Below, one piece after another: positions 7,393 through 12,119 of a DNA stretch of 12,119 nt (the stretch's first letter is position 1; every line of letters starts with the position of its first letter). The notes under the pieces are model-generated. The model did no database searches and was not told where the DNA came from. It saw only the letters and a list, made by a program, of their open reading frames with translations. Position numbers and translations under genes: made by a program. Source of the DNA: Clostridiales bacterium UBA6363. GTDB taxonomy: Bacteria > Bacillota > Clostridia > UBA1381. Location of the stretch: positions 2,893 to 15,011 of the forward strand of contig DJRJ01000083.1 in NCBI GenBank assembly GCA_002438865.1, read 5' to 3'.

Positions 7393-7481
7393 GCCGATGT
7401 GGCGGAATTGGCAGACGCCCAGGATTTAAAATCCTGTGGGAAGAAATTCCCGTGCCGGTTCGACCCCGGCCATCGGCACCA
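7393..7481 (+). tRNA. tRNA-Leu (anticodon UAA)
   Basis: Class II tRNA of 89 nt with encoded CCA (7479-7481). The acceptor arms GCCGATG (7393-7399) and CATCGGC (7471-7477) are fully complementary, with discriminator A at 7478. The anticodon stem CAGGA (7420-7424) / TCCTG (7432-7436) carries loop TTTAAAA with anticodon TAA (7427-7429), reading UUA codons. A long variable arm (about 7437-7453) is typical of tRNA-Leu, and the T loop contains GGTTCGA. It is a single-gene unit with its own promoter and terminator. Confidence 0.98.
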
Positions 7482-9786: not shown

Positions 9787-9795
9787 TTAATTTGG

Positions 9796-9827
9796 GCGGT
9801 AACAAACTTCGGTTTGTTGCCGCTTTT
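9796..9827 (+). terminator. Intrinsic terminator of pta-ackA
   Basis: GCGGTAACAAAC (9796-9807) and GTTTGTTGCCGC (9812-9823) form a 12-bp stem with one G-U pair, capped by a TTCG tetraloop and followed by TTTT (9824-9827). It starts 9 nt after the ackA stop and isolates acetate production from the carAB promoter. Confidence 0.93.
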
Positions 9828-9903: not shown

Positions 9904-9932
9904 TTGACAAAGCGGCAATATAATGGTACAAT
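9904..9932 (+). promoter_or_regulatory. Promoter of the carA-carB operon
   Basis: A perfect -35 TTGACA (9904-9909) and a -10 TACAAT (9927-9932) are separated by exactly 17 bp. The start site should be near 9939, giving a carA leader of about 175 nt that contains a small ORF and an intrinsic terminator. Confidence 0.88.
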
Positions 9933-9960
9933 AATTGAAATGAATACGGGAGGAACGGCA

Positions 9961-10038
9961 ATGTCAGTGACGGTAAAGATTAAGAATAAAACTTCATATG
10001 CAGGCAGCGGACTTGCCGGTTCGTTTTTGTTTAATTGA
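9961..10038 (+). CDS. Putative 25-residue leader peptide of carAB
   Basis: Twenty-five codons then TGA, read as MSVTVKIKNKTSYAGSGLAG followed by SFLFN. The Shine-Dalgarno site GGGAGG (9948-9953) lies 7 nt before the ATG, as good as any in the window, which is the main reason to believe it is translated. It begins about 22 nt after the predicted start site. There is no run of a regulatory amino acid and no Arg codon, so sensing of arginine by ribosome stalling is unlikely. Its last codons coincide with a U-rich stretch (10024-10036), and its stop codon overlaps the terminator stem. The peptide itself resembles no family I recognise; the role is probably in the act of translation, not the product. 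Confidence 0.55.
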   Translation: MSVTVKIKNKTSYAGSGLAGSFLFN

Positions 10039-10065
10039 CAATGTATAATCATTGTCTTTTTTTTT
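10037..10065 (+). terminator. Intrinsic terminator / attenuator in the carAB leader
   Basis: GACAATG (10037-10043) and CATTGTC (10050-10056) form a perfect 7-bp stem with a TATAAT loop, followed by nine T (10057-10065). The first stem bases are the GA of the leader ORF's stop codon TGA (10036-10038). It stands between the promoter at 9904 and carA at 10114, and no other promoter is visible after it, so it should act as an attenuator. A ribosome at the stop codon would cover the left arm and prevent the hairpin. Confidence 0.85.
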
Positions 10066-10113
10066 GAAAATTTATGCATTTTCTGAATGGTTTACGGAAG
10101 GAGTTATGGTTTT

Positions 10114-11169
10114 ATGAAAGCACAGTTGATTTTGGAAAACGGACAGCGCTTTACGGGCGATATGTTCGGTGCGGTAAAGGATATAGCGGGGGAGATAGTT
10201 TTTACAACGGGAATGACAGGCTACCAGGAAACTCTTACCGACCCGTCATTTTGCGGACAGATAGTAACAATGACCTTTCCGCTTATAGGAAACTACGGTA
10301 TAAATCTTGACGATAACGAAGCAAAGCATACTCACCTTAAGGCGTTCGTTGTAAGGGAAAAATGCAATGCGCCGTCAAATTTCAGAAACGAAATGAACCT
10401 TGACGATTTTCTTGAGGAGGAGGGCGTTGTCGGACTTGAGGGCGTGGATACACGTGCGCTTACGAAAATAATCCGTGACGGCGGTTGCATGAAAGCCGTT
10501 ATAATGCAGGGCGAGCCGACGGACGAAGAAGTGAAAAAGCTTATGGACTCTCTCGATAACTCAAACGTAATAATGGAAACAACCTCTGATGAAAAGTATG
10601 TCATTAACGAGGACGGGACGCCGCATATCGCATTTGTGGATATGGGCGCAAAAGACGGAATATTAAGAAATCTTAAAAAACGCGGCTGTAAAATAACGGT
10701 GTTCCCTGCAAACGTAAAGGCAGAGGAAATAGAAGCCGTAAACGCAGACCTCGTGTTTATATCAAACGGACCGGGAGACCCGCTTGACGCTCCCGGAACA
10801 GTGGATACAATCAAAACGCTTATCGGAAAAATACCTGTATGCGGAATTTGTATGGGACATCAGATAATAGGACTTGCGCTCGGAGCAACTACCGAAAAGC
10901 TTAAGTTCGGACATCACGGCGGAAATCATACCGTAAAGGATTTGATTACGGGAAAATGCTATATAACAAGCCAGAATCATAACTATATCGTGTCAAACCT
11001 TCCCGATAAGGTGGTTGATATGTTTGTGAACGTAAATGACGGAACGTGTGAGGGAATTATGCATACGGAACTTCCTGTTATGAGTGTGCAGTTTCACCCC
11101 GAGGCGGCGCCCGGTCCCATCGATACGGAGTGGCTGTTTGACAGATTTTTGGGAACGATAAACAAGTAA
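10114..11169 (+). CDS. carA: Carbamoyl-phosphate synthase small (glutaminase) subunit
   Basis: Hydrolyses glutamine and channels the ammonia to CarB, which makes carbamoyl phosphate for pyrimidine and arginine synthesis. The N-terminal CPSase small-chain domain includes [14 protein letters not shown] (about 34-47) and [16 protein letters not shown]; the C-terminal class I glutamine amidotransferase carries the nucleophile Cys246 in GICMGHQ and His328/Glu330 in [10 protein letters not shown], completing the triad. Length is 351 residues, close to Bacillus homologues. The ATG at 10114 is chosen because GGAAGGAG (10096-10103) lies 10 nt upstream; the in-frame ATG at 10087 would precede that site and add nine non-conserved residues. 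It is followed by carB after 13 nt. Expression is probably controlled by the leader attenuator. Confidence 0.98.
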
Positions 11170-11182
11170 GGAGGAAGAAATT

Positions 11183-12119
11183 ATGCCGTTGGATAAATCT
11201 ATAAAAAAGGTACTCGTTATAGGCTCAGGTCCGATAGTAATAGGACAAGCCGCAGAATTTGACTATTCCGGCACACAGGCTTGCCGTGCGATAAAAGAAG
11301 AGGGCGTGGAGGTTGTTTTGGTAAACTCCAACCCTGCAACGATTATGACCGACAGAGGTATGGCGGACAAAACGTATATCGAACCGCTTACCGCAGAATA
11401 CATTGAAAGAATAATAGAAAAGGAACGCCCCGATGCGCTTGTTGCGGGCATGGGCGGACAAACGGGACTTAATCTGTCCGTTGAGCTGTACGATAAGGGT
11501 ATTCTCGATAAATACGGCGTGCGTGTAATCGGCACGTCCATTGCCTCGATAAAAGAGGGCGAGGACAGAGATTCGTTTAAACAGCTTATGGAGCGCACGC
11601 ATCAGCCGATTGCACCGTCGGAAATTGTGACGGATTTGGAGTCGGGACTTGATTTTGCAAAGCGGATAGGCTACCCGGTTATAGTAAGACCTGCTTACAC
11701 GTTGGGTGGAACGGGCGGCGGTATTGCCGAAACGCCGGAGGAGCTGGAGGCAATACTTCTTCAGGGACTTCACCTTTCGAGAGTGGGACAGGTACTCCTT
11801 GAAAAATCAATAAAAGGCTGGAAAGAGATTGAATTTGAAGTAATGCGTGACGGTGCGGGAAACTGTATTACGATATGTTCAATGGAAAACGTTGACCCCG
11901 TAGGCGTTCACACGGGCGATTCGATAGTTGTTGCACCGGCGCTTACGCTTGCGGATAAAGAGTATCAGATGCTCAGAAAAGCGGCTATAGATATTATCAA
12001 TTCAATTGAAATAAAAGGCGGCTGTAACGTTCAGTTTGCGCTTGATCCCGACAGCTTTAATTATGCGGTAATAGAGATAAACCCGCGTGTGAGCCGTTCG
12101 TCGGCACTTGCGTCAAAGG
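11183..12119 (+). CDS. carB: Carbamoyl-phosphate synthase large subunit, N-terminal part (3' end outside window)
   Basis: Uses ammonia from CarA, bicarbonate and two ATP to make carbamoyl phosphate. The first 312 codons of a protein normally near 1070 residues are present; the reading frame is open to the window edge. Visible are the N-terminal pre-ATP-grasp domain ([22 protein letters not shown], then [10 protein letters not shown]) and most of the first ATP-grasp (carboxyphosphate) domain: Arg129 in EDRDSF, Arg169 in [13 protein letters not shown], both at the E. coli numbering, the [11 protein letters not shown] segment, and metal-site Glu298/Asn300 in [15 protein letters not shown] (E. 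coli 299/301). GGAGG (11170-11174) immediately follows the carA stop and sits 8 nt before the ATG, so the two subunits are made from one message. Confidence 0.98.

What the first reader, a model, noticed from the sequence alone, without database searches (positions are those of the whole stretch)
9904..10113. carAB leader built like a translation-coupled attenuator
Seen: consensus promoter, about 22 nt of leader, a 25-codon ORF with a strong ribosome-binding site, a U-rich stretch (10024-10036), then a perfect 7-bp hairpin with nine T whose left arm starts in the ORF's stop codon, then the carA ribosome-binding site. Established: in enterobacterial pyrBI, low UTP makes RNA polymerase pause in U-rich leader sequence, the ribosome catches up and blocks the terminator; many Firmicutes instead use PyrR. 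Inference: this clostridial carAB operon may use a pyrBI-like, UTP-sensitive or general translation-sensitive switch, reached independently. A weak possible pause hairpin (GGCA 10003-10006 / TGCC 10014-10017) lies ahead of the U-rich stretch.
Basis: partly seen in the sequence, partly recalled or inferred. Interest (0 to 1): 0.72.

Follow-up and report, generated by a model that had tools for sequence, protein, structure and literature searches.

The report
Ribosome-gated switch before carAB genes
In a group of gut Clostridia, the genes that make carbamoyl phosphate are preceded by a tiny gene whose translation appears to keep a transcription stop signal from forming, and the tiny gene's ribosome entry site can be hidden by its own far end; this may be a way to tie an enzyme's supply to the cell's nucleotide level without a dedicated regulator protein.

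Summary
48 carA leaders from at least two families share promoter, ribosome site, short ORF, pyrimidine-rich tract and terminator. In 27 of 28 dereplicated leaders the stop codon lies at the terminator stem (1.4 to 3.8 expected). The few indels keep the frame, the peptide drifts, and the conserved tract is read in all three frames: translation matters, not the peptide.

Leaders' ribosome sites pair better with their own tract than with other leaders' tracts (z -6.8; five control pairings show no such advantage). The tract carries the NusG pause motif TTNTTT in register in 21 of 25 (in the window, shifted), and the genome's NusG has the pro-pausing residues.

Best reading: a protein-free, translation-gated attenuator. 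While polymerase is held in the U-rich tract, the anti-SD is still inside it, a ribosome enters, reaches the stop codon and blocks the terminator. UTP sensing is plausible but unproven; one relative has the same leader before a pyrimidine operon. Other Clostridia families keep the ORF-terminator module but carry a PyrR-loop motif beside its ribosome site. New variant of pyrBI/pyrE-type attenuation.

The parts
9904..9932 (+). sigma-A type promoter, TTGACA / N17 / TACAAT
   Evidence: a promoter matching at least 10 of 12 positions ends 28-46 nt before the leader start codon in 47 of 48 leaders, the miss being L023
9948..9953 (+). Shine-Dalgarno GGGAGG of the leader ORF
   Evidence: sequestered in the predicted fold
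9961..10038 (+). leader ORF, 25 codons plus TGA
   Evidence: frame conserved without peptide conservation
9941..9961 (+). 5' arm of helix P1 (SD side; purine-rich)
   Evidence: MFE fold; swap test in 28 leaders. Not significant for the window alone (z -1.09)
10013..10033 (+). 3' arm of helix P1: anti-SD and U-rich tract
10027..10032 (+). TTGTTT, a match to the NusG pause motif TTNTTT; in the window it lies downstream of the aligned register used by 21 of 25 leaders
   Evidence: motif as given in PMC12288461 and PMC9226507 passages
10006..10025 (+). local hairpin (8 pairs, 3 G-C) just before TTTGTTT; possible pause hairpin, conservation not tested
10037..10065 (+). intrinsic terminator, 7-bp stem and nine T; left arm begins in the stop codon
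10096..10103 (+). carA Shine-Dalgarno GGAAGGAG
10114..11169 (+). carA, carbamoyl phosphate synthase small subunit
   Evidence: TIGR01368 over its cut-off
11183..12118 (+). carB, start only (window and contig end here)
   Evidence: first third of the large-subunit model TIGR01369; contig length

Best explanation
A cis-acting, regulator-protein-free attenuator gated by ribosome entry. Shown by comparison: (1) the leader ORF is maintained and ends at the terminator stem; (2) its peptide is not what is selected; (3) the pyrimidine-rich tract near its end pairs with its own Shine-Dalgarno region (helix P1) and also keeps U where it is not paired. P1 and the terminator do not compete for sequence, so a ribosome is the obvious link: P1 shuts off leader translation, and a ribosome at or near the stop codon covers the terminator's left arm. 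Inferred: the deciding event is whether a ribosome enters before RNA polymerase finishes the tract. When polymerase is held in the U-rich tract (low UTP and/or a NusG-dependent pause), the anti-SD is still inside the enzyme, the SD is open, a ribosome loads, follows and suppresses termination, so carAB is made. When UTP is ample, polymerase passes quickly, P1 closes, the leader stays untranslated and transcription stops. The result would be carbamoyl phosphate supply matched to pyrimidine need.
For: Stop codon at the stem in 27 of 28 leaders against 1.4-3.8 expected. In 18 close pairs (some sequences used more than once) the only 4 indels, in 3 pairs, are 3, 3, 6 and 9 nt; differences at codon positions 1/2/3 are 50/43/62. 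The aligned tract is read in phases 2, 1 and 0 in 12, 8 and 5 of 25 leaders. Swap test: own SD x tract -14.86 against -11.66 kcal/mol swapped, none of 20,000 permutations as low, own better than row and column means predict in 23 of 28; none of five control pairings shows this. Compensatory pair types at tract columns, e.g. column 101 G-C 16, C-G 4, A-U 1 and column 105 U-A 12, G-C 3, C-G 1. T is invariant at columns 106, 107 and 113 although columns 106 and 107 are unpaired in 8 and 7 of 25. TTNTTT in 23 of 28 in the last 45 nt, 3 of 28 in the first 45. Own NusG has Asn-Thr at the motif-reading positions. Same leader before a pyr operon in G058. In E. coli a terminator several base pairs after a stop codon is almost fully suppressed (PMC4824070, abstract and passages).
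Against: No expression, pausing or UTP data exist. The window's own fold is not better than shuffles (z -1.09 for the ORF part; -1.78 with the terminator), and in the swap test its own pairing ranks only in the best 36% (row) and 11% (column). L046, L067, L039, L065, L056 and L037 pair more weakly than the swapped average. One of the four C-G pairs at column 101 (L050) is formed inside the ORF, not at the SD. The G058 pyr leader folds with its SD paired (P 0.86-0.96), but its swap test is no better than with foreign tracts. U-richness is partly explained by pairing to a purine-rich SD. Over the whole ORF, TTNTTT does not exceed codon shuffles (40 sites against 34, maximum 53; 23 leaders against 17.7, maximum 25); only its position is striking, and the window is one of 4 of 25 not in the shared register. 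Three orthologous carA of genus g12 lack this leader (L048, L066, L108).
Confidence: 0.6

Rival explanations
1. Translation-gated attenuator without nucleotide sensing: the same SD gate and terminator respond to general ribosome supply, initiation rate or growth state.
For: Everything shown (ORF frame, anti-SD, stop at stem) fits without UTP. The U-rich tract is partly accounted for by base pairing.
Against: Invariant U at columns that are unpaired in 7-8 of 25 leaders, the TTNTTT position, and the link to pyrimidine genes in two operon types suggest a transcription-speed input.
Confidence: 0.25
2. An unknown protein or small molecule binds P1 or the leader and sets SD access, as PyrR may do at the PyrR-loop motif in other families of the class.
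For: 16 loci elsewhere in the class carry the PyrR-loop motif next to the SD of a leader ORF, so gating of this SD by a protein has a possible precedent; 43 of 70 family genomes have a PyrR above cut-off.
Against: The loop motif is absent from 48 of 48 leaders; no PyrR above cut-off in the window's genome; no Rfam match but a tRNA in 20 sources including the window; sequence inside P1 is poorly conserved.
Confidence: 0.1
3. Ribosome-arrest or amino-acid attenuation (arginine or other codons) controls the terminator.
For: Arg is 5.1% of leader residues against 2.3% of carA; Phe and Ser are high.
Against: 12 of 28 leaders, including the window, have no Arg; the conserved tract is read in three frames, so no shared C-terminal peptide exists; Phe and Ser excess would follow from the U-rich tract.
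Confidence: 0.03
4. Accidental ORF over an ordinary terminator of the upstream gene or a constitutive leader.
For: Short ORFs and promoter-like sites are common by chance.
Against: 27 of 28 against at most 3.8 expected, frame-keeping indels, and ackA already has its own terminator-like hairpin at 9794-9825 upstream of the promoter.
Confidence: 0.02

Closest known systems
E. coli pyrBI attenuator (pyrL leader)
   Same: Leader ORF, pausing that synchronises ribosome and polymerase, terminator suppressed by a closely following ribosome, pyrimidine genes (PMC4824070 and PMC5021804 passages; U-rich nature of the pause region recalled).
   Different: pyrL's terminator lies inside a 135-bp ORF; here the stop codon sits at the stem. 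No SD-sequestering helix is mentioned for pyrL in the passages read. Different gene and phylum.
E. coli rph-pyrE attenuator
   Same: Distance of the stop codon to the attenuator sets read-through (PMC2784333 passage).
   Different: There the upstream ORF is a full gene; here a 25-codon leader whose SD is gated.
B. subtilis tlrB (yxjB) leader
   Same: NusG-dependent pause gives a leader ribosome time to start before an SD-sequestering structure closes; the ribosome blocks a terminator (PMC6851288 passages).
   Different: Trigger there is drug arrest at RYR; here no arrest peptide, and the SD of the leader itself is sequestered by an anti-SD in its own ORF.
PyrR attenuators
   Same: Pyrimidine control by leader termination; carA leaders in other families of the class carry the loop motif.
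   Different: No PyrR loop in 48 of 48 leaders; B. subtilis PyrR stabilises an anti-antiterminator RNA (PMC4347634 passage); no leader ORF is mentioned there.
carA motif (SRC-12-1) of betaproteobacteria
   Same: Structured element before carA.
   Different: Extended hairpin immediately before the carA RBS, mostly in Polynucleobacter, proposed as a riboswitch acting on translation; no ORF-terminator module is mentioned (PMC8632094 passages).

Membership tests
pyrBI/pyrE-type translation-coupled attenuator | leader ORF whose ribosome reaches the terminator | tested here: met
   47 of 48 stops at -14..+15 of the stem; 27 of 28 against 1.4-3.8 expected
pyrBI/pyrE-type translation-coupled attenuator | U-rich, UTP-sensitive pause before the terminator | tested here: inconclusive
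   tract conserved and U-rich (13.8 of 20 against 11.8 in codon shuffles), but pausing and UTP effect need experiments and pairing explains part of it
pyrBI/pyrE-type translation-coupled attenuator | expression falls with UTP and depends on leader translation | not testable with these tools
   no expression data
PyrR attenuator | PyrR-binding loop RTCCNGNGAGGY (recalled consensus) | tested here: not met
   0 of 48; the same scan finds it in 16 of the 34 class-level regions
PyrR attenuator | pyrR in the genome | tested here: not met
   no match over cut-off in the window's genome, 73% complete; 43 of 70 in the family
amino-acid or arrest-peptide attenuator | conserved codon run or C-terminal peptide | tested here: not met
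   three reading frames across the tract, 12 of 28 without Arg
NusG-pause-assisted leader (tlrB/vmlR kind) | TTNTTT before the critical structure and a pausing-type NusG | tested here: met
   21 of 25 in register (the window has it out of register), 23 of 28 in the last 45 nt; Asn-Thr in own NusG
NusG-pause-assisted leader (tlrB/vmlR kind) | NusG-dependent pause measured | not testable with these tools
   the motif alone is not sufficient in B. subtilis (PMC12288461 passage)
riboswitch | conserved ligand-binding core | tested here: not met
   no Rfam match in the leaders scanned (only a tRNA in the window); ORF interior poorly conserved. The Rfam silence is weak evidence, since PyrR-loop leaders were also silent

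The most novel reading that the evidence does not exclude
Clostridial carAB carries one old module, a short ORF whose translation holds off a terminator, with an exchangeable gate on ribosome entry: a PyrR-binding loop beside the SD in several families of the class, and in the window's family and its Monoglobus-like neighbour an anti-SD that doubles as a nucleotide-sensitive pause site. In the latter, RNA polymerase itself is the UTP sensor because a paused enzyme hides the anti-SD.
Probability: 0.35. Interest if true: 0.85.

Novelty: new variant of a known kind. Interest (0 to 1): 0.72.

Why it matters
Ribosome-coupled attenuation is often thought rare in Firmicutes, where RNA polymerase is reported to outrun ribosomes in B. 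subtilis (Johnson et al. 2020, seen only as a reference; content recalled). A leader that hides its own ribosome site unless polymerase is delayed would show how such coupling can be arranged locally. The PyrR-loop counterpart suggests a concrete evolutionary swap between a protein gate and an RNA gate on the same module, and gives a reporter-testable system for how cells without PyrR match carbamoyl phosphate supply to pyrimidine need.

Tried and rejected
Arrest peptide or amino-acid attenuation: rejected on three-frame reading of the tract and missing codons. PyrR attenuator in this family: no loop in 48 of 48 leaders and no PyrR above cut-off in the window's genome. Arginine control: not supported; the same leader precedes a pyr operon and the leader peptides lack a common Arg codon. 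RNAalifold on the MAFFT alignment found only the terminator (7 pairs, no compensatory pair), because the SD arm is out of register in that alignment; I relied on the swap test and did not run the count of structure pairs. The same leader before other genes: the model search of 70 genomes gave carA leaders, one pyr operon (G058) and one weak match judged unrelated by eye (G066, E 0.005). That model is not sensitive: it gave no match in eight genomes whose carA leader I had read (G007, G008, G010, G011, G012, G022, G025, G069), so further copies may exist. In 36 pyr-region loci it found only the G058 case and one match at E 0.83. Other families of the order (f2-f4): 24 regions, none with this leader by inspection. 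First null for the stop-codon position kept the start fixed although starts had been chosen partly by where the frame ends; one search repeats it with the choice included.

Full report
What is there. The window is the end of contig G000:C53 of an unnamed, 73%-complete genome that is the only held member of its genus, in a family (f1) of 70 held genomes. Public relatives found by carA are mostly uncultured Clostridia, some labelled Ornithomonoglobus or Monoglobus.

How many relatives, and what was dropped. The carA protein search gave 54 public loci and matches in 67 of 70 family genomes (many are partial or paralogous). I read 71 upstream regions, the window's included. 48 have the leader. 23 were set aside: three genus g12 orthologues with another leader (L048, L066, L108), four distant loci (L072-L075), one truncated inside the leader (L045), one duplicate (L126), and 14 (L112-L125) with carA behind other genes, mostly arg or pyr genes, or as a divergent copy, without this leader. 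L025, L051 and L054 had under 60 nt upstream; L070 and L076 were partial carA. Clustering at 80% similarity gave 28 representatives.

Translation is selected, the peptide is not. In 27 of 28 representatives the stop codon falls between -14 and +15 of the stem, an interval set from the data. Dinucleotide shuffles expect 3.35 with the start fixed. Because starts were chosen partly by where their frame ends, I repeated this with the choice rerun on each shuffle: 1.4 or 3.8 expected; and taking simply the first start with an SD after the promoter, 23 of 28 end there. Among all 48 it is 47, the exception being L044, whose ORF runs through the terminator as in pyrBI. Start codons are ATG 38, GTG 1, TTG 9. 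In 18 close pairs, not all independent, there are four indels, of 3, 3, 6 and 9 nt, and differences at codon positions 1, 2 and 3 are 50, 43 and 62. In a 25-leader alignment the tract is nearly constant as nucleotides but is read in three frames, by 12, 8 and 5 leaders. A shared arrest peptide or codon run cannot explain that.

The tract is an anti-SD. The ribosome-site region of each leader was paired in silico with the 3' part of its own and of every other leader: own -14.86, swapped -11.66 kcal/mol, z -6.8, none of 20,000 permutations as low; 23 of 28 do better with their own partner than row and column means predict. Five control pairings (ribosome site with the early ORF, with the stretch after the terminator, with the promoter region; codons 2-9, and the stretch upstream of the ribosome site, with the tract) show no such advantage; in the last, own pairing is worse than swapped (z +2.7). 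In individual folds the purine core nearest to GGAGG is paired with the 3' half at a mean P above 0.5 in 23 of 28; L057 and L058 score near zero because their SD hairpin closes earlier, and L034, L056 and L067 lie at 0.32-0.45. Pair types change together: UAAAGG with CCUUUA (L033), CAAAGG with CCUUUG (L110), GAAAGG with UCUUUC (L028); column 101 shows G-C 16, C-G 4, A-U 1, G-U 1, U-G 1, of which one C-G (L050) is formed inside the ORF. For the window alone the fold is not significant and its swap ranks are 0.36 and 0.11, so its P1 rests on the family.

U is kept beyond pairing. Columns 106, 107 and 113 are T in 25 of 25 although columns 106 and 107 are unpaired in 8 and 7. Around column 105, which is free to vary and co-varies in P1, the flanking T give TTNTTT in 21 of 25; the window is one of the four without it there, but has TTGTTT at 10027-10032. 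This is the NusG pause motif of B. subtilis (PMC12288461, PMC9226507 passages). It occurs in the last 45 nt of 23 of 28 leaders and in the first 45 nt of 3, but total sites over the ORF do not exceed codon shuffles. The genome's NusG has Asn-Thr where the residues numbered 81-82 of the best solved chain are Asn-Thr and those numbered 85-86 of another are Ser-Val; the paper passage gives N81/T82 for B. subtilis and S85/V86 for E. coli, and the species of the two chains is inferred from that numbering. The motif alone does not prove a pause.

How it most likely works. P1 and the terminator coexist in one fold, so a ribosome is the obvious link: P1 stops leader translation, leader translation stops the terminator. 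In E. coli a terminator several base pairs past a stop codon is almost fully suppressed, and 10-15 nt of free RNA ahead of the ribosome allow full folding (PMC4824070). The unsettled step is the input. A delay in the U-rich tract would keep the anti-SD inside RNA polymerase and the ribosome site open, which makes polymerase speed, and hence UTP, the natural signal; this is inference. A close precedent for the timing problem is tlrB, where a NusG-dependent pause lets a leader ribosome start before an SD-sequestering structure closes (PMC6851288 passages).

Pyrimidine link and relatives. A covariance model of the leader found, in 70 family genomes, carA leaders, one copy in G058 before pyrC-pyrK-pyrD-pyrF-pyrE-pyrB-pyrI (names by NCBIfam), with its own promoter, 21-codon ORF and terminator, and one weak match judged unrelated. 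The model missed eight genomes whose leader I had read, so it does not exclude more copies. The window genome's pyrB-pyrC-pyrF-pyrK-pyrD run has no pyrR and no leader terminator by eye. Across the class (391 genomes searched, 51 with a close carA, 40 of them outside the family), I read 34 of those 40 upstream regions. A second family, f19, shares the ORF leader: five of its seven regions are the same loci as among the 48, two more (L190, L193) by eye. In 16 of the 34 (12 in family f43, two in f23, one each in f71 and f78) a PyrR-loop motif (recalled consensus) stands directly before the SD of a leader ORF; an ATG whose frame ends in the terminator is present in 13 of 16 against 1.83 expected with start choice included, and in 15 of these leaders tested the SD shows no anti-SD pairing (own -6.57, swapped -6.97, p 0.82). 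So the ORF-terminator module may be older than either gate. Order-level families f2-f4 have carA behind pyr or arg genes or otherwise without this leader (24 regions).

Novelty. Ten library searches and the passages read show no description of this leader. The only carA RNA motif seen is betaproteobacterial and different (PMC8632094 passages). Leader-peptide attenuators in Firmicutes as such are known, e.g. for histidine in bacilli (PMC2965389 passages). The library holds open-licence papers only, and the main pyrimidine-regulation review is not held, so prior mention elsewhere cannot be excluded.

Verdict. The finding is real and stronger than its author could know: a conserved translation-gated attenuator (high confidence), with a protein-free gate not seen in the literature searched, and UTP sensing as a testable proposal (about even odds).

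Noticed in passing
L195-L198, L200, L201, L207-L209, L213, L215-L219, L223: PyrR-loop motif directly followed by SD and a 12-79 codon leader ORF, most ending in the terminator: PyrR may act here by blocking leader translation. Rfam's gathering thresholds do not flag these leaders.
   Followed up: partly
L195, L196, L209, L219, L223 (upstream of carA): Leader 5' end (about ACACTTTAAATTGG) looks complementary, by eye, to an AAGTGTATTT-like stretch after the terminator; possible further long-range structure.
   Followed up: no
L187 (G055), L188 (G054), L108 (G052): Genus g12 carA leaders differ: no comparable ORF seen by eye; L187 and L188 share a TTTRAATAATATATTTTTTTGCC stretch.
   Followed up: no
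L235:799-970: In G058 the same leader precedes a pyrC-pyrK-pyrD-pyrF-pyrE-pyrB-pyrI operon; no carA orthologue was found in that genome (86% complete).
   Followed up: yes
20 of the loci L142-L161, and L162:10072-10200: Most of the 20 pyrB or pyrR-pyrB upstream regions read show a TAGACA / TATAAT-like promoter and no obvious leader terminator (L145 does have a hairpin with a T run), although 43 of 70 genomes keep pyrR; its RNA target there is unclear.
   Followed up: partly
L049, between the leader terminator and carA: Repeated GTAGGGGCGGTCATCGGCC units inserted between leader and gene in one relative (G028).
   Followed up: no
window 7393-7478 and 9794-9825: A tRNA gene, and a 14-pair terminator-like hairpin after ackA (pta-ackA named by NCBIfam).
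   Followed up: no
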